A DNA stretch of 31,287 bases from a virus, in the IMG/VR virus record IMGVR_UViG_3300020578_003085, positions 1 to 31,287 of that record; one strand, 5' to 3'. A program made the position numbers and the translations under genes. The notes under the pieces are model-generated. The model was not told where the DNA came from, ran no database searches, and saw nothing but the letters and a program-made list of their open reading frames with translations. Below are positions 13,181-31,282 of this stretch, in pieces (the stretch's first letter is position 1; the number at the start of each line of letters is the position of its first letter).

Positions 13181-13803
13181 TGAGAATAATTTGTTTTGGT
13201 GATAGTTGGACCGCGGGCCATGGAGTTGAGACAGACGAGTCTTATAAAGAGATACCAAATCCCCCACTTTTTATTGAAAGACTTAGGGAACAGAATTCTT
13301 GGCCGAGATGGACGGCTGAAAAATTAGGGTGTGTATACGTAAATAACGGTGTTTGTGGTGATGGTAACAAATACATTTACAACAATGTGGTGGTTTCATT
13401 ACAAAACGGTTATATCGATACAGATGATGTTATCATAATAATGTTTTCTTGGCCATATAGATATATGAGACATGATAGTGAAACCGTAATTGACATTTAC
13501 AACATGTTAGAAAAAGAACTAATAGGTATAAAACATTTTTATTTTAATTCGTTTTACCCATCTTTTAAAGATTATGAATTCGACACTACCCAATTACCAA
13601 AATATTTCATAAATCCAAATGGTTGTGTTGCGGATGTACTAAGAGATTATGAAATAAAAAATGATATGAGTGTGTGGGAATATGGTAGTAGAAGTATATG
13701 GAATGATGAGAAAAATTTTTACGAAGGAGATTATCATCCAAACTTAGAGGGATATAAAATTATAGGTGATTACATTTATGAAAATATTAAAGATAAATTA
13801 TGA
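13180..13803 (+). CDS. SGNH/GDSL-type hydrolase
   Basis: This compact 207-residue SGNH protein has block I CFGDSWTAGHGVE (S9 nucleophile), NNGVCGDGNKYIYNN near 55-69 as the glycine and asparagine region, and VIIIMFSWPYRYM near 84-96 as the block III strand. The C-terminal EGDYHPNLEGY (D184, H186) is the histidine block. It is the second FGDSW-type copy, similar in layout to the 4061 gene, whereas the 3222, 9188 and 12437 genes are FGCSFT-type. SGNH proteins of about 200 residues are typical single-domain lipase/esterase-fold enzymes, so this copy looks complete. It probably adds or removes an acyl group on a sugar. ATGA overlap with the next gene. Confidence 0.75.
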   Translation: MRIICFGDSWTAGHGVETDESYKEIPNPPLFIERLREQNSWPRWTAEKLGCVYVNNGVCGDGNKYIYNNVVVSLQNGYIDTDDVIIIMFSWPYRYMRHDSETVIDIYNMLEKELIGIKHFYFNSFYPSFKDYEFDTTQLPKYFINPNGCVADVLRDYEIKNDMSVWEYGSRSIWNDEKNFYEGDYHPNLEGYKIIGDYIYENIKDKL

Positions 13804-14561
13804 GTCAAGAATTAATTTATAAAGAGGAAAATTTACTATTGTTTAAAAAATATTTGAAAATTTTTGAGAATAAATTAGAAAATTACATACCCGAGATTGA
13901 CGAAAATTCAAACTATTATGCTTCACTGTTCGATTTAAGATGTTTACCTGAACTATTACCTATTGTAAAAAATCATTTATATTTCTTAAATAATAATAGT
14001 TTAGGTGTTAAGTGGGGATTACAAATTTTTCATAATAGTGAAAATGAATATTATTTAAAAAATTTGTTTAAAGAATTTGAAAACATTGTTTATGAAAATT
14101 TGAATATACCAAATTTTACAAGTAGACAAACTCACACTGAAATTTTGAAATCTACTGAATTTTGGAAAAAATCTATGGGAAATAAGATATTAATTTTTCA
14201 AAATGATTCTATGTTGCTAAAAAGTGGAATCGAGGATTTTTTAAAATGGGATTATATTGGTGCTCCTTGGAAAAAACCAAAAGAAGGTTGTTTTGTAGGA
14301 AATGGTGGTTTATCTTTAAGAACAAGAGACAAAATGATTAAAATAACTGAAAAATACAAATCGGATTACGGAATGTGGGAAGACATATATTTTTCAAAAT
14401 ATTTGTTAGACGATGGTTTAGCCGATTTGGAAAGTGCTAAAAAATTTGCAATGGAAGACGATTATTATTATGACCCCATGGGAATTCATAATCCAATAAA
14501 AATTGAAACTAATTTATTAAAAGAAATATTCGAAAAAAATGTACTTGAATACACCTTATAA
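13800..14561 (+). CDS. DUF5672-like putative glycosyltransferase
   Basis: This 253-residue protein contains the features I associate with DUF5672 proteins. ILIFQNDSMLL at 130-140 has an acidic residue in an N-D-S arrangement at the end of a strand, comparable to a DXD site. IEDFLKWDYIGAPW at 144-157 follows, then VGNGGLSLRTRDKM at 166-179, and WEDIYFSKYL at 193-202. The layout (acidic strand end, GNGG loop, ED pair) is that of a GT-A fold. DUF5672 genes sit in polysaccharide clusters of bacteria and phages; no substrate is known to me. The N-terminal 60 residues are helical and charged and have no signal sequence. It overlaps the oxygenase gene downstream by 23 nt. Confidence 0.7.
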   Translation: MSQELIYKEENLLLFKKYLKIFENKLENYIPEIDENSNYYASLFDLRCLPELLPIVKNHLYFLNNNSLGVKWGLQIFHNSENEYYLKNLFKEFENIVYENLNIPNFTSRQTHTEILKSTEFWKKSMGNKILIFQNDSMLLKSGIEDFLKWDYIGAPWKKPKEGCFVGNGGLSLRTRDKMIKITEKYKSDYGMWEDIYFSKYLLDDGLADLESAKKFAMEDDYYYDPMGIHNPIKIETNLLKEIFEKNVLEYTL

Positions 14562-25424: not shown

Positions 25425-26471
25425 ATGAAAATTGTTCACACATATATCAAAACTAAGAATGGTACCGGATTTAATGAGTACACCGCCTATTCTATGTTAT
25501 TATCTGTTTTATTGGCTAAAAAACATTATGAAAGAGTAGAACTTTATTGTAATCAAGAAATACATGATATTGTAAGAGAAATAGGAATACCATACACAAA
25601 TATTAATGTTGAGGTATTGAAGGACGTAAATGTCGACACCTTCTCAATACCCAAATTAATGGTATATTCATTACAAGAAGAACCTTTTATACATATAGAT
25701 TTAGATACCTTTTTATTCAATAAACTTCCTGAATTAGATAGGAACACTATTTGGGGTTGTTACCCAGAGGGTTCTGGTGAATATATTGGATATACAAAAA
25801 ACACAACAAATTTTTTCACAACATACCTACAAGGAGCGTTCAAGATACAAAACGACGTGCCCGAAGAATTTTTAGAGTTTGTTAAATTCAAAGATGTAAT
25901 GAATATGTGTGTATTTGGTGGTTATAATTTTTCCTTAATTAAAAGAGCGTCTCAATATTGTTTAGAAATATATAATAAAAACAAGGAATTCTTCGATTCT
26001 GACTATTATTATTCTTGTATCATAGAACAACTATTTATTCCATCAGCAGTAAGGTATATGGTTAACAGTAAGCTATCAGCAAGAAAAACAGATAGTGAAT
26101 TGTTTACATTCTTTTTTGATAAAAACCCCACTTTAATTCATTACGAGGAAAAGAAACAAATGTATCCATTTATAATTGAATCGAACAGACAAATTTTAAA
26201 TATTAAGAATAGGGATGACATATTTAAAAATATTTCTTATAATTTCAATGGTTTTTTTCATCTAAATGGATATAAAACCATAAAAGAATTGATGTTTTTA
26301 ATTAAACAAAAACTAATACAAGATTTCGGAGCGGTAAATGAGGTTATTAAAATAGATAGAAAATTTAATGAGGTCGGTAATTGTTTAGAATCAACAGAAA
26401 ATTATATGGATTATTTACAAACACAAATGGAGAATATTAATAAAATAAAAAATGGTGTTTATAAAAACTAA
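25425..26471 (+). CDS. DXD glycosyltransferase-like protein (DUF6734-like)
   Basis: This 348-residue protein looks like a GT-A enzyme. After an N-terminal strand and helices (MKIVHTYIKT, EYTAYSMLLSVLLAKKH), IHIDLDTFLFNKL at 89-101 provides the metal-binding D92-x-D94, and a GGYNFSLIKRA segment later in the protein resembles the acceptor-side loop. The layout resembles DUF6734 proteins of Bacteroidota as I remember them. The last 50 residues (FNEVGNCLESTENYMDYL onward) look like an extended helical tail that might mediate oligomerisation. No membrane segment is present. It probably adds a sugar to the glycan built by neighbouring enzymes. It starts ten bases after the previous stop without a Shine-Dalgarno sequence, which suits a host that does not rely on one. 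Confidence 0.65.
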   Translation: MKIVHTYIKTKNGTGFNEYTAYSMLLSVLLAKKHYERVELYCNQEIHDIVREIGIPYTNINVEVLKDVNVDTFSIPKLMVYSLQEEPFIHIDLDTFLFNKLPELDRNTIWGCYPEGSGEYIGYTKNTTNFFTTYLQGAFKIQNDVPEEFLEFVKFKDVMNMCVFGGYNFSLIKRASQYCLEIYNKNKEFFDSDYYYSCIIEQLFIPSAVRYMVNSKLSARKTDSELFTFFFDKNPTLIHYEEKKQMYPFIIESNRQILNIKNRDDIFKNISYNFNGFFHLNGYKTIKELMFLIKQKLIQDFGAVNEVIKIDRKFNEVGNCLESTENYMDYLQTQMENINKIKNGVYKN

Positions 26472-26482
26472 TAATTATTATT

Positions 26483-28111
26483 ATGTATACTATTGGGGTT
26501 TCCGCATATTATCACGATTCGTCCGTTTGTTTATTTCAAGACGGTAACTTAATTTTTGCTTGTGAAGAGGAAAAATTCACAGGTATTAAACACGACTCGT
26601 CTTTCCCCAAAGAATCTTTAAAATATGTTTTTCAAAACTATAATTTAAGTAAAGGAGACATTGAGTGTGTTTGTTATTATGAAAATCCACTATTGAGATT
26701 CAAAAGAAAAAAATCTTTTTTAAAATCACTCGTCAATAATATAAAGGTTAGATACAATTTAGGTAAAATAAGTAAAAAAATATTTTACACTCCTCATCAC
26801 ATGTCTCATATGATGTATTCATATGGTTCATCTAACTTTAAGGAGTCTTTAGTTGTGTCGATAGACGGGGTAGGAGAAACTTCTACCGTGTCCATTGGAA
26901 TTGGTAAAGATGGGTTAGTTGAACAAATTAAGACAATAGAGTATCCACATTCTTTGGGATTATTCTATTCCGCAATGACTGCATACTTAGGATTCAAACC
27001 GAATGAAGGTGAGTACAAAGTTATGGGTTTAGCTTCGTATGGTGATCCGTCACAATATAGAGACGAGGTATCTAAGTTGATTAAATTTGAAAATGGTCAA
27101 ATCATATGTAACATGGATTATTTTTCATGGGATGTATCTGATATTACAATGTTTAATCATAAATTAGAAGATGTTATAGGTTTAGGACCGAGAGACGTAA
27201 AAGATGCGATTGAGCCATCACACAAAAATTTAGCGGCTTCTATACAAGAAAAATATGAAGAAGTTTTTTTTAAATTATTAGAAAATTCTAAAGAATTATA
27301 TAACTCAGATAACCTTTGTTTGGGCGGTGGATGTGCATATAATGGAACCGCCAACGGTAAAATAGTTAACAAGGGTATGTTTAAAAAATTGTGGATACCA
27401 CCGGCACCATCTGACGCAGGAAACGCGATAGGCAGTTGTTTATACTATTTAAGAAAAATAAAAAATATTAAAATAAAACTATCAACAACCCCCTTTTTGG
27501 GACCTAGTTATACTACAAAAGAAATATCTAAAGTGTTAAATGAATACAAACTTTTGGTCCAATATGAACATTTAGAACATCAACAATTATTAACAAGAGT
27601 TGCGAATCATATTTCCCAAGGTAAGGTTATCGGATGGTTTCAAGATAGGATTGAATTCGGTGCAAGAGCATTAGGTAACAGATCAATACTTGCTGACCCA
27701 ACTCATCCTGAAATGAAAAACCAAATAAATCGTGTTATCAAAAAAAGGGAAGGATTCAGACCATTTGCACCTATGGTTTCATTTGAGAACCAAAGTGAAT
27801 ATTTCGAGTCAAAGGAATATGTTCCTTATATGAATCAGGTAGTTATGGTTAAAGAGAAATACAGGGATAAACTACCCGCGGTGACACACGTTGATGGTAC
27901 GGCTAGAATTCAATCAGTGATACCAATGAATCCTATTTATAGATTATTAAAGAAGTTTCAAGAGAAAACGGGATATCCCATATTACTAAACACATCTTTT
28001 AATATTAAAGATAAAACAATGGTATTAACACCTGAAGATGCAATAATAACTTTCTTAGATACTGAAATGGATGTTTTGGTATTAGGAAATTTTATAGTTT
28101 TTAAAAAATAA
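26483..28111 (+). CDS. O-carbamoyltransferase, NodU/CmcH/TobZ family
   Basis: This 542-residue protein has both domains of the family. The N-terminal Kae1-like part starts IGVSAYYHDSSVCLF, has H105-H-M-S-H109 and D128 in SIDGVGE as the iron and nucleotide site, NEGEYKVMGLASYG near 173-186, and CLGGGCAYNGTANG. The C-terminal YrdC-like part has GWFQDRIEFGARALGNRSIL at 384-403 and FRPFAPMV, and ends with LNTSFN and a TPEDAI segment. These enzymes use carbamoyl phosphate and ATP to place a carbamoyl group on a hydroxyl, here probably of a sugar. The length is close to the usual 550-600. A small gene follows almost directly and may be its partner. Confidence 0.92.
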   Translation: MYTIGVSAYYHDSSVCLFQDGNLIFACEEEKFTGIKHDSSFPKESLKYVFQNYNLSKGDIECVCYYENPLLRFKRKKSFLKSLVNNIKVRYNLGKISKKIFYTPHHMSHMMYSYGSSNFKESLVVSIDGVGETSTVSIGIGKDGLVEQIKTIEYPHSLGLFYSAMTAYLGFKPNEGEYKVMGLASYGDPSQYRDEVSKLIKFENGQIICNMDYFSWDVSDITMFNHKLEDVIGLGPRDVKDAIEPSHKNLAASIQEKYEEVFFKLLENSKELYNSDNLCLGGGCAYNGTANGKIVNKGMFKKLWIPPAPSDAGNAIGSCLYYLRKIKNIKIKLSTTPFLGPSYTTKEISKVLNEYKLLVQYEHLEHQQLLTRVANHISQGKVIGWFQDRIEFGARALGNRSILADPTHPEMKNQINRVIKKREGFRPFAPMVSFENQSEYFESKEYVPYMNQVVMVKEKYRDKLPAVTHVDGTARIQSVIPMNPIYRLLKKFQEKTGYPILLNTSFNIKDKTMVLTPEDAIITFLDTEMDVLVLGNFIVFKK

Positions 28112-28114
28112 ATT

Positions 28115-28234
28115 ATGATAACTAAATTAATTAATTGGGTTAAAAATAAACTCAAGGAGAGAAAAAAGAAAAAAGAATTTCAAAAAAAATTAGAGGAGTT
28201 AAGAAAACGTGATCCTTTTATATATAAACACTAA
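28115..28234 (+). CDS. 39-residue basic helical protein next to the carbamoyltransferase
   Basis: A short ATG-to-TAA frame of 40 codons fills most of the longest space between large genes. The product has a mildly hydrophobic N-terminus (MITKLINWVKNKL), a strongly charged lysine/glutamate helix (KERKKKKEFQKKLEELRKR) and the tail DPFIYKH. It starts three bases after the carbamoyltransferase stop and ends five bases before the next ATG, the same tight spacing as real genes here. Carbamoyltransferase loci often carry very small companion genes, such as DUF5989 with a similar 'PFIY' tail; this link is from memory and the full sequences differ. An amphipathic N-terminal helix could associate with a membrane or with the enzyme. 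Confidence 0.62.
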   Translation: MITKLINWVKNKLKERKKKKEFQKKLEELRKRDPFIYKH

Positions 28235-28239
28235 TCTTA

Positions 28240-29589
28240 ATGAAACCCGCCTTTTTGACGTTCATATATGGTGATGAAACTTATGTGAAATTTGGTTCAA
28301 AACTGTTATCTAAGTTTAAACAAAACGGATATGAAACCTTTGTGTATACTGAGAAAAAAAACCAATTTATCGGGCACAATGTAATTTCTTATGAAGAAAA
28401 TACATTTTCATATCACCATAAAATTTTTGCTGTAGAGAAACTACACGACTTAGGTTATAAAGAAATATTACTAATCGACGCTGATTTAATTATCAACGAC
28501 GATGTTTTTTTTAATCTATTGATAGATATCAAATTTGAAGATGGTATTTCATATACCCGTAACGGACTATCAAAAAATTTAGAAGAATTTATAGGTGATA
28601 TAAATTTGGATGTATACAAAGAATCCATAAAAAAATATAATTTAGAAAATTTAAATTTAATACAATCTGTTTGGGAAGATATTATATATTTTAATTTAAA
28701 TAATATAGATTGTAAAAAATTCTTCGATTATTATCATGAACTAACTGATATAAAACATGAGTTTGATAAAGGCATAAGAAAGAGTGACCGATTTGGTGAT
28801 CAAGAAGGATACACAATAGTAATTGCTTCAAAACTATCAAACACACCAATACAGATAAACGAAGACCTCAGAAAAATATCCACCAATATTATTGCATCAA
28901 ATTACACCTATGACAATGATATAATAAAACCAATTCTAAGCGAATTAGATATTATAATACCATATAGAAAAGATAGTGAGGAAAGAAAATTAAATCTATT
29001 AAAAGTAGTTGACTATTATAAAAAACATTTCAAGGATACGAATTTTATAATTTCCGAACAGGGTACTGAATCAACCATTGAAACAGACGGATTCGAGTAT
29101 ACTTTTAGAAAAAAGGATTTACCACATAATCAATCACAATGTATAAACGATGGTATTAAATTATCAAAAAAGAAATACGTTTGTGTAATTGATTGTGACA
29201 TTATTTTGTTGGATTACTATAACATATACACATCCCTAAAACAAATGTTTATGGATGAAATTGATTATTGTTTACCGTATACTGAATGTTTTGATTTACC
29301 CGATTTTAAAACAAGGGAACCTTGGGGAAAGAAATGTGTCGGCGGTATTTTTATTATTAATAGAAAAAAATTTATTGATGTAGGTATGAATGATGAGGGA
29401 TTTGTTGGTTGGGGAAGAGAGGATGACGAAAGACATCATAGATTAATTAATAATGGGTTTCGATTTAAAAGAATGACAGGTTATATAATACACTTGTTTC
29501 ATCCCGACCAAAGAGATATTGTGAAGACAAGTGAAATAAATTTAGACCGTCTAAAAGAAATAACAAATGATAACAGTTATATTAACTAA
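28240..29589 (+). CDS. Two-domain glycosyltransferase (GT8-like plus GT2/GT7C-like)
   Basis: This 449-residue protein has two GT-A domains. Residues 1 to about 230 resemble GT8-like enzymes: FLTFIYGDETYVK at the start, then ILLIDADLIIND at 76-87 with D80-x-D82 as the metal site. Residues about 235-449 resemble GT2 enzymes with a GT7 C-terminal acceptor motif: LDIIIPYRKDSEERK, ISEQG near 271-275, VCVIDCDIILLD with D318-x-D320, and VGWGREDDERHHRL at 389-402 with the G-W-G-x-E-D-D signature of galactosyl and N-acetylgalactosaminyl transferases. HLFH at 418-421 fits the late metal-binding histidine. It may add two sugars alternately, as chondroitin-type polymerases do (inference). Its last 23 nt overlap the next gene. 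Confidence 0.78.
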   Translation: MKPAFLTFIYGDETYVKFGSKLLSKFKQNGYETFVYTEKKNQFIGHNVISYEENTFSYHHKIFAVEKLHDLGYKEILLIDADLIINDDVFFNLLIDIKFEDGISYTRNGLSKNLEEFIGDINLDVYKESIKKYNLENLNLIQSVWEDIIYFNLNNIDCKKFFDYYHELTDIKHEFDKGIRKSDRFGDQEGYTIVIASKLSNTPIQINEDLRKISTNIIASNYTYDNDIIKPILSELDIIIPYRKDSEERKLNLLKVVDYYKKHFKDTNFIISEQGTESTIETDGFEYTFRKKDLPHNQSQCINDGIKLSKKKYVCVIDCDIILLDYYNIYTSLKQMFMDEIDYCLPYTECFDLPDFKTREPWGKKCVGGIFIINRKKFIDVGMNDEGFVGWGREDDERHHRLINNGFRFKRMTGYIIHLFHPDQRDIVKTSEINLDRLKEITNDNSYIN

Positions 29590-30844: not shown

Positions 30845-31282
30845 ATGATATACTGGTTTACAGGTCAACCCGCATCGGGGAAAACGACCATAGCAAAACA
30901 TTTAAAATCTTATTTGAGTAATACCGAGAGAGTTATCCATATTGATGGAGATGATTTACGTAAAATCTTCAACAATAAAGATTATTCTGAAACAGGTAGA
31001 AGAAGGAATATAGAAAGAGCTCAAGACATTGCTCGTTTTATGAGTGAAAAGGGATATTCAGTTGTGGTATCACTTGTTTCACCATACAAAGACATGAGAG
31101 ATAGTTTTAAAAAAGATAATAACGTAATTGAAATTTATGTACATACAAAAGACATAAGAGGAAGGGAAGAATATCACGTTGATAATTACGAACCCCCGAC
31201 TGAAAATTATGTTGATTTAGATACCACTAACAAAAGAGATGACGAGTCATTCATCGATTTAATTAAATTTATTGATTTATGA
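30845..31282 (+). CDS. cysC: Adenylylsulfate (APS) kinase-like protein, short form
   Basis: This 145-residue P-loop kinase begins WFTGQPASGKTTIAK, with the Walker A GQPASGKT at 7-14. IDGDDLRKIF at 34-42 binds the APS side, GRRRNIERAQDIAR at 51-64 matches the family's 'R-x-x-N-I-x-R' helix, and SLVSPYKDMRD at 76-86 matches 'ISPYRxxR'. YEPPTENYVDLDT at 115-127 is the conserved tail. APS kinases phosphorylate APS to PAPS, the sulfate donor. Usual length is about 175-210, so this is trimmed, mainly in the lid and middle region. No sulfurylase or sulfotransferase is visible in the window. A related small-molecule kinase is possible. The stop overlaps the next ATG as ATGA. Confidence 0.83.
   Translation: MIYWFTGQPASGKTTIAKHLKSYLSNTERVIHIDGDDLRKIFNNKDYSETGRRRNIERAQDIARFMSEKGYSVVVSLVSPYKDMRDSFKKDNNVIEIYVHTKDIRGREEYHVDNYEPPTENYVDLDTTNKRDDESFIDLIKFIDL

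What the first reader, a model, noticed from the sequence alone, without database searches (positions are those of the whole stretch)
28115..28234. Unannotated-size gene (39 residues) behind the carbamoyltransferase
A tiny ATG-TAA frame fits exactly in the 128-nt space with 3- and 5-nt spacers. It encodes an amphipathic start, a K/E-rich helix and a DPFIY tail. Small companions occur at other carbamoyltransferase loci, so this may be a conserved partner that gene finders miss.
Basis: partly seen in the sequence, partly recalled or inferred. Interest (0 to 1): 0.57.

Follow-up and report, generated by a model that had tools for sequence, protein, structure and literature searches.

The report
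Missed partner gene of viral carbamoyltransferase
The 39-residue frame is a real gene, kept under strong selection in many uncultivated viruses right beside a carbamoyltransferase, and it is probably a small helper of that enzyme whose exact job is untested.

Summary
Of 80 viral carbamoyltransferase (CT) loci, 78 hold a 35-42 residue ORF ending DPF[ITV]Y plus two residues; 70 start between 17 nt before and 7 nt after the CT stop, 33 as a 4-nt overlap. Codon evolution shows purifying selection (pooled dN/dS 0.10, 28 disjoint pairs). Searching by the tail alone still led to the CT in 71 of 80 stretches, and among 80 loci of a frequent neighbour (APS-kinase-like) it was present in exactly the 17 that carry the CT. 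Pfam, PHROGs and NCBIfam have no significant match; none was found in 296 Bacteroidota genomes or in cultured phages. The nearest known thing is DUF5989, a membrane-spanning mini-protein behind bacterial CTs, ending APFIY[TA][LI]F. The viral proteins lack the span and do not match DUF5989 by profile, but share the terminal PFIY, the position, and a tentatively sister CT clade. Best reading: a soluble, basic, one-helix accessory subunit or adaptor of the CT, whose invariant tail is the likely contact. Contact is not shown: two AlphaFold fusions gave a helix but no confident docking of the tail.

The parts
28115..28234 (+). 39-residue accessory gene (stop included)
   Evidence: conserved frame in 78 of 80 viral CT loci, dN/dS 0.098
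28115..28168 (+). N-terminal segment (residues 1-18), hydrophobic residues plus lysines, possibly an amphipathic helix
   Evidence: hydrophobic moment 0.48; its own shuffles reach it at p 0.08 in the window; p<0.05 in 17 of 50 distinct relatives, so only modest support
28211..28231 (+). C-terminal tail DPFIYKH, the most conserved part
   Evidence: D33, P34, F35, Y37, H39 invariant in 40 rows; AlphaFold confidence low at its end
26483..28111 (+). NodU/TobZ-type carbamoyltransferase, 542 aa, the genetic partner
   Evidence: PF02543 3.3e-62, PF16861 1.2e-64; NovN 9s2t Z 42.9, then GdmN, TobZ, VtdB
28240..29589 (+). next gene, glycosyltransferase-like; the gene in this place differs from locus to locus
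   Evidence: PF02709 2.3e-12; for the varying neighbours
30845..31282 (+). APS-kinase-like P-loop protein, a frequent second neighbour of the small gene
   Evidence: PF01583 2.5e-19

Best explanation
The frame encodes a small accessory subunit (adaptor) of the viral NodU/TobZ-type carbamoyltransferase. Shown: it is a protein-coding gene under purifying selection, found once in nearly all the virus records searched, usually placed so that its translation would be coupled to the CT, with conservation concentrated in the tail KxDPF[ITV]YxH. Inferred: the product is one basic helix whose N-terminal hydrophobic/lysine part lies on a membrane, a lipid-linked glycan or a glycosyltransferase, and whose tail binds the CT, so that the enzyme is held where its sugar acceptor is made. 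It would do without a membrane span what the membrane-spanning DUF5989 mini-protein may do for the related bacterial CTs. My confidence by step: real gene 0.97; works with the CT 0.85; adaptor or anchor rather than another mode of help 0.45.
For: Conservation and position: (78 of 80 loci; 70 abutting or overlapping the CT stop, 33 by a 4-nt overlap). Selection. Linkage seen from the other side: tail-only DNA pattern, CT found in 71 of the 80 stretches examined. Dependence on the CT and not on the other neighbour: 80 APS-kinase-like loci, 17 with both small gene and CT, 63 with neither, none discordant; records with CT and small gene but no APS-kinase-like gene exist (245, 183 and 145 kb). One match per record. 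CT and small-protein distances correlate (Mantel r 0.53, 0 of 5000 permutations as high). Parallel in bacteria: DUF5989 over the cut-off in 57 of 148 Bacteroidota genomes, with a CT in 27 of 30 of its loci. PF[ITV]Y 1-4 residues from the end occurs outside the two families in 1 of 6,372 ORF products counted. The viral CT clade is sister to the DUF5989/SxtJ CT clade in the trees.
Against: No contact is shown: in both fused AlphaFold models the end of the tail has low confidence (mean 56 over the last seven residues, 44 over the last three). Amphipathicity of the N-terminal part is only modest. In two records the small gene is about 40 kb from the CT, and in two more outside the fetched stretch, sitting before an APS-kinase-like gene instead; four records with the small gene show no CT at all, one of them 219 kb long. 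Sixteen of 80 loci in the second check have no copy in the fetched flank. DUF5989 has a strong membrane span and by the positive-inside rule (recalled) its tail should face outwards, so the shared PFIY may not do the same job. The sister grouping has weak support (86/54).
Confidence: 0.5

Rival explanations
1. The small protein serves the whole glycan or nucleotide pathway, or the APS-kinase-like enzyme first of all, and sits by the CT because all three are used together.
For: All 8 tail-pattern stretches without a CT and with sequence beyond the small gene have an APS-kinase-like gene directly downstream; 45 of 80 CT loci have one within the fetched flank; the window has one at 30845.
Against: 63 of 80 APS-kinase-like loci have neither CT nor small gene; 24 of 33 records searched, including ones of 145-245 kb with CT and small gene, have no such kinase.
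Confidence: 0.17
2. A free-acting basic peptide (membrane-active or host-directed) that happens to travel in a CT cassette.
For: Net charge +7 to +12 with hydrophobic N-terminal residues; small basic peptides are common phage host-takeover factors (recalled).
Against: Tight coupling to one enzyme family, an invariant tail rather than an invariant amphipathic face, correlated CT and small-protein distances.
Confidence: 0.13
3. A true DUF5989 descendant that lost its membrane span and kept the tail.
For: Same position, similar N-terminal W/RKK arrangement, shared terminal PFIY, tentatively sister CTs, nearly complementary spread: 1 viral contig matched a DUF5989-type pattern, 0 of 296 bacterial genomes matched the viral profile.
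Against: No PF19451 match; profile-profile alignment covers only 5 tail columns at 10% probability; opposite hydropathy; sister support 86/54.
Confidence: 0.15
4. Not a functional protein: a translation-coupling leader or chance frame.
For: Only its tiny size and the frequent 4-nt overlap with the CT.
Against: dN/dS 0.098 over 28 pairs, invariant residues, persistence after displacement from the CT, no Rfam match in the window.
Confidence: 0.02

Closest known systems
DUF5989 (Pfam PF19451), mini-protein behind bacterial carbamoyltransferases
   Same: About 50 residues, directly behind (or one SxtJ-like gene behind) a NodU/TobZ-type CT, N-terminal W and RKK segment, terminal PFIY
   Different: DUF5989 has a hydrophobic span (19-residue hydropathy 2.65 and 3.03 in the two tested); the viral proteins have none (maximum -0.13) and no profile match
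NodU/TobZ carbamoyltransferase family (TobZ, GdmN, NovN, VtdB)
   Same: The neighbouring enzyme is a clear member by Pfam, PDB sequence and fold
   Different: The solved relatives listed are antibiotic-pathway enzymes (pathways partly recalled); I saw no small partner chain in those listings but did not open the entries. GdmN is described as a homodimer through a C-terminal domain (abstract, PMC9633730)
5-hydroxymethylcytosine carbamoyltransferase of phages (eLife 2021, PMC8670742)
   Same: A phage CT of the same superfamily
   Different: It lies with thymidylate synthase genes and acts on 5hmC; its authors report that CTs of unmodified contigs lie with genes such as glycosyltransferases, as here (passages). 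No small companion is mentioned in the passages seen
Kae1 family with small partners (KEOPS, TsaBD)
   Same: Same fold in the CT N-terminal part (Z about 18-21); those enzymes use small partner subunits such as Pcc1 or GON7 (recalled)
   Different: No sequence or fold link of the viral small protein to those subunits was tested

Membership tests
DUF5989 (PF19451) | match to the PF19451 profile | tested here: not met
   No hit at E<=10; 0 matches in the window
DUF5989 (PF19451) | membrane-spanning hydrophobic segment | tested here: not met
   highest 19-residue hydropathy over 50 viral proteins -0.13; two DUF5989 proteins 2.65 and 3.03
DUF5989 (PF19451) | C-terminal PFIY followed by 2-3 residues | tested here: met
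   (viral tail PF[ITV]Y + 2; DUF5989 PFIY + 3)
DUF5989 (PF19451) | gene near a NodU/TobZ-type carbamoyltransferase | tested here: met
   78 of 80 viral CT loci; 27 of 30 DUF5989 loci
NodU/TobZ carbamoyltransferase (gene 26483-28111) | Carbam_trans_N and Carbam_trans_C domains, TobZ-like fold | tested here: met
NodU/TobZ carbamoyltransferase (gene 26483-28111) | metal-binding histidines and aspartates of the Kae1-like domain | tested here: inconclusive
   H105, H106, H109, D128 and D311 are invariant; that they match TobZ's ligands is recalled, not aligned by residue number
Physical subunit of the CT | complex with the CT | tested here: inconclusive
   Fused AlphaFold models: helix block pLDDT about 71-88, end of tail 44-56; no inter-part error or coordinates available

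The most novel reading that the evidence does not exclude
A virus-specific family of one-helix microproteins that are required partners of a viral carbamoyltransferase clade and that replace, without a membrane span, the DUF5989 mini-protein of the sister bacterial enzymes: the same C-terminal PFIY key used in a soluble and a membrane form, a two-part enzyme module not described for this superfamily in the literature I could search.
Probability: 0.3. Interest if true: 0.7.

Novelty: new variant of a known kind. Interest (0 to 1): 0.52.

Why it matters
NodU/TobZ-type carbamoyltransferases with solved structures (TobZ, GdmN, NovN, VtdB) are listed as single enzymes. If both the viral clade and the bacterial DUF5989 clade depend on a PFIY-ended mini-protein, assays of the enzyme alone would miss a component, and the acceptor or membrane site of many glycan carbamoyltransferases could be approached through it. 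It also gives DUF5989, for which no paper was found, a testable function, and adds a microprotein family with no match in the annotation libraries tried.

Tried and rejected
Chance frame or RNA element: rejected by dN/dS and invariant residues; no Rfam match in the window. Known family: no significant match in Pfam, PHROGs or NCBIfam (best E 0.067), a PDB profile search gave only chance hits (best E 0.32), tblastn in phage records none. Natural CT fusion: the DUF5989 hit in a 434-residue open frame of G094 proved to be an open read-in upstream of an ordinary DUF5989 start, antisense to other genes, not a fusion. APS-kinase-like gene as main partner: suggested, weakened. Homology to DUF5989 by profile: only 5 tail columns. 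The fold table spans model residues 1-541 in most rows, so the small helix is barely tested there; some GdmN rows run into it (to residues 554-566), which I do not interpret. The bacterial genome scan for the CT clade found one partial relative in a Saprospiraceae MAG contig, cut off before its downstream neighbour.

Limits of the counts: viral contigs include near-identical records; one search found 88 stretches, of which the 80 listed were examined; one search kept 80 of 346 APS-kinase-like relatives, ranked by likeness to the window's own, so the more distant kinases found beside CT-less copies are not in that sample; absence means absence from the fetched flank; one search had no bacterial positive control. 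In the tree, CTs labelled 'alone' lack DUF5989 in the fetched flank only.

Full report
OBSERVATION. The frame 28115-28234 is present as described, between the CT stop (28111) and the next start (28240), with spacers of 3 and 5 nt. The window is an uncultivated virus record of 31,287 bases. Much of what I scanned is sugar and glycan genes: nucleotide-sugar epimerases and dehydratases, a DegT-type aminotransferase, glycosyltransferases, a 2OG-oxygenase, and the CT.

CONSERVATION. The CT as query found 121 relatives in viral contigs, 80 of which were returned. In 78 of these 80 loci there is a short ORF ending DPF[ITV]Y and two residues; they are 50 distinct proteins of 35-42 residues. Distances from the CT stop: 70 between -17 and +7 nt, 33 of them the 4-nt overlap; one at +99; five at +677 to +1491, that is with other coding sequence between; two just before the CT. 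What follows the small gene differs from locus to locus: glycosyltransferase-like, APS-kinase-like, SGNH-like and other proteins (identities by eye unless). In the 40-row alignment K31, D33, P34, F35, Y37 and H39 are invariant. Over 28 disjoint pairs pS is 0.485 and pN 0.073, dN/dS 0.098, with substitutions 105/61/264 by codon position. That this is a protein is near certain.

WHAT IT TRAVELS WITH. Three tests. First, a DNA pattern of the tail alone (no CT in the query) found 88 stretches; of the 80 listed, 71 contain the CT: by my count of the rows 59 abut it from downstream, one lies 99 nt off, five have an intervening gene and six lie just before it. Second, of the nine without a CT, one ends at the stretch edge and eight have an APS-kinase-like gene directly downstream (recognised by eye and, for three, aligned). 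Of the nine records, five carry the CT elsewhere and four (51, 219, 39 and 10.6 kb) show none. Third, taking that kinase as query, 80 of 346 relatives were fetched: 17 have both small gene and CT, 63 neither, none only one. Conversely 24 of 33 records searched lack the kinase, among them 145-245 kb records with CT and small gene. So the gene follows the CT; the kinase is a frequent second neighbour. In a wider CT sample 64 of 80 loci have the small gene in the fetched flank; of the 16 without, some belong to records that carry it elsewhere. With the small-protein profile 46 of 49 virus records searched match (8 of 9, 38 of 40), each once; one record has a second, weak match.

WHERE ELSE. tblastn found no copy in cultured phages, whose CTs are at most 36% identical in the rows listed. 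In the seven annotated cultured-phage loci read, another gene overlaps, abuts or closely follows the CT and no gene of this kind is annotated (the record is unannotated). The profile matched 0 of 296 Bacteroidota genomes (no positive control among genomes). The CT clade gave one partial bacterial hit in a genome scan.

THE BACTERIAL COUNTERPART. DUF5989 (recalled as a CT neighbour, then tested) exceeds its cut-off in 57 of 148 Bacteroidota genomes. Of 30 loci fetched, 27 contain a CT, and all 30 hold an ORF ending APFIY[TA][LI]F. The order is CT-DUF5989 or CT-SxtJ-like-DUF5989 (the SxtJ name is recalled). The viral family ends DPF[ITV]Y and two residues. Outside the two families a PF[ITV]Y 1-4 residues from the end occurred once among 6,372 ORF products of these loci. 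One viral contig matched a DUF5989-type pattern. Yet PF19451 does not match the viral protein, profile-profile comparison aligns only five tail columns at 10% probability, and the viral proteins have no membrane span. I therefore do not file it as DUF5989. In a tree with 14 CTs that have no DUF5989 in the fetched flank, the viral CTs (100/100) and the DUF5989/SxtJ CTs (100/100, including two 'alone' CTs whose genomes hold a DUF5989 elsewhere) are sisters at 86/54; in a tree with other rows at 88/72. This is suggestive only.

MECHANISM. The CT has both Pfam domains and the fold of NovN, GdmN, TobZ and VtdB. The small protein is predicted as one helix plus a loose tail. To probe docking I folded CT and small protein as one chain in two forms, with the 34-residue translated gap of locus L023 as linker and with a 2-residue linker (window). 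The CT folds well (mean pLDDT of the whole 87.6 and 89.0), the helix has block means of about 71-88, the end of the tail 56 (last seven residues) and 44 (last three). No docking is shown, and no coordinates or error matrix were available. CT and small-protein distances correlate (r 0.53), as expected of genes inherited together. From the invariant tail, the coupling to the CT and the bacterial parallel I infer an accessory subunit or adaptor. A membrane or lipid-glycan role of the N-terminal part rests on composition and on the DUF5989 parallel and is weaker: amphipathicity exceeds shuffles at p<0.05 in only 17 of 50.

LITERATURE. Search listings for 'DUF5989' (0 papers), CT with SxtJ (7 papers, the titles mostly on saxitoxin), CT with phage and small protein (20 of 1,232 listed), NodU/TobZ (20 of 125 listed), CT with cyanophage (7) and a mixed search (10 of 20 listed) showed no title or abstract describing such a partner. 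Of papers opened: passages of PMC8670742, abstract and outline of PMC9633730, two passages of PMC3037559, which lists the CT gene in cyanophages. The library is open-access only.

VERDICT. Observation confirmed, first interpretation supported in its genetic part. A new viral microprotein family tied to a CT clade, a variant of the DUF5989 kind of CT companion; interest 0.52.

Noticed in passing
window 30845-31282; L095, L102, L117, L131, L138, L140, L144: An APS-kinase-like P-loop gene (about 145 aa) recurs in these glycan regions; in these CT-less loci it is followed by a gene with a GRWQNWHKGH-type motif that looks like a nucleotidyltransferase (by eye).
   Followed up: partly
L028 4986-9527, L206 3986-7253: One CT sub-clade without the adjacent small gene sits just before a gene that looks like a contractile tail sheath (by eye, not tested), not in a glycan region.
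   Followed up: no
L239 and L244, 4001-5680: A deep-branching CT sub-clade (100/99) without the small gene in the fetched flank; the records of L243 and L244 (G342, G343) carry it about 40 kb away beside the APS-kinase-like gene.
   Followed up: partly
L387, L391, L393, L394, L398, L404, L415: Bacterial CT loci with a roughly 140-residue SxtJ-like membrane protein directly behind the CT, in several followed by DUF5989.
   Followed up: partly
record G348 (219 kb; L140): Carries the small gene and an APS-kinase-like gene, but no CT of this clade was found in it.
   Followed up: partly
window 25425-26471 and 13800-14561: Genes matching DUF6734 and DUF5672, families of unknown function, in the same glycan cluster.
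   Followed up: no
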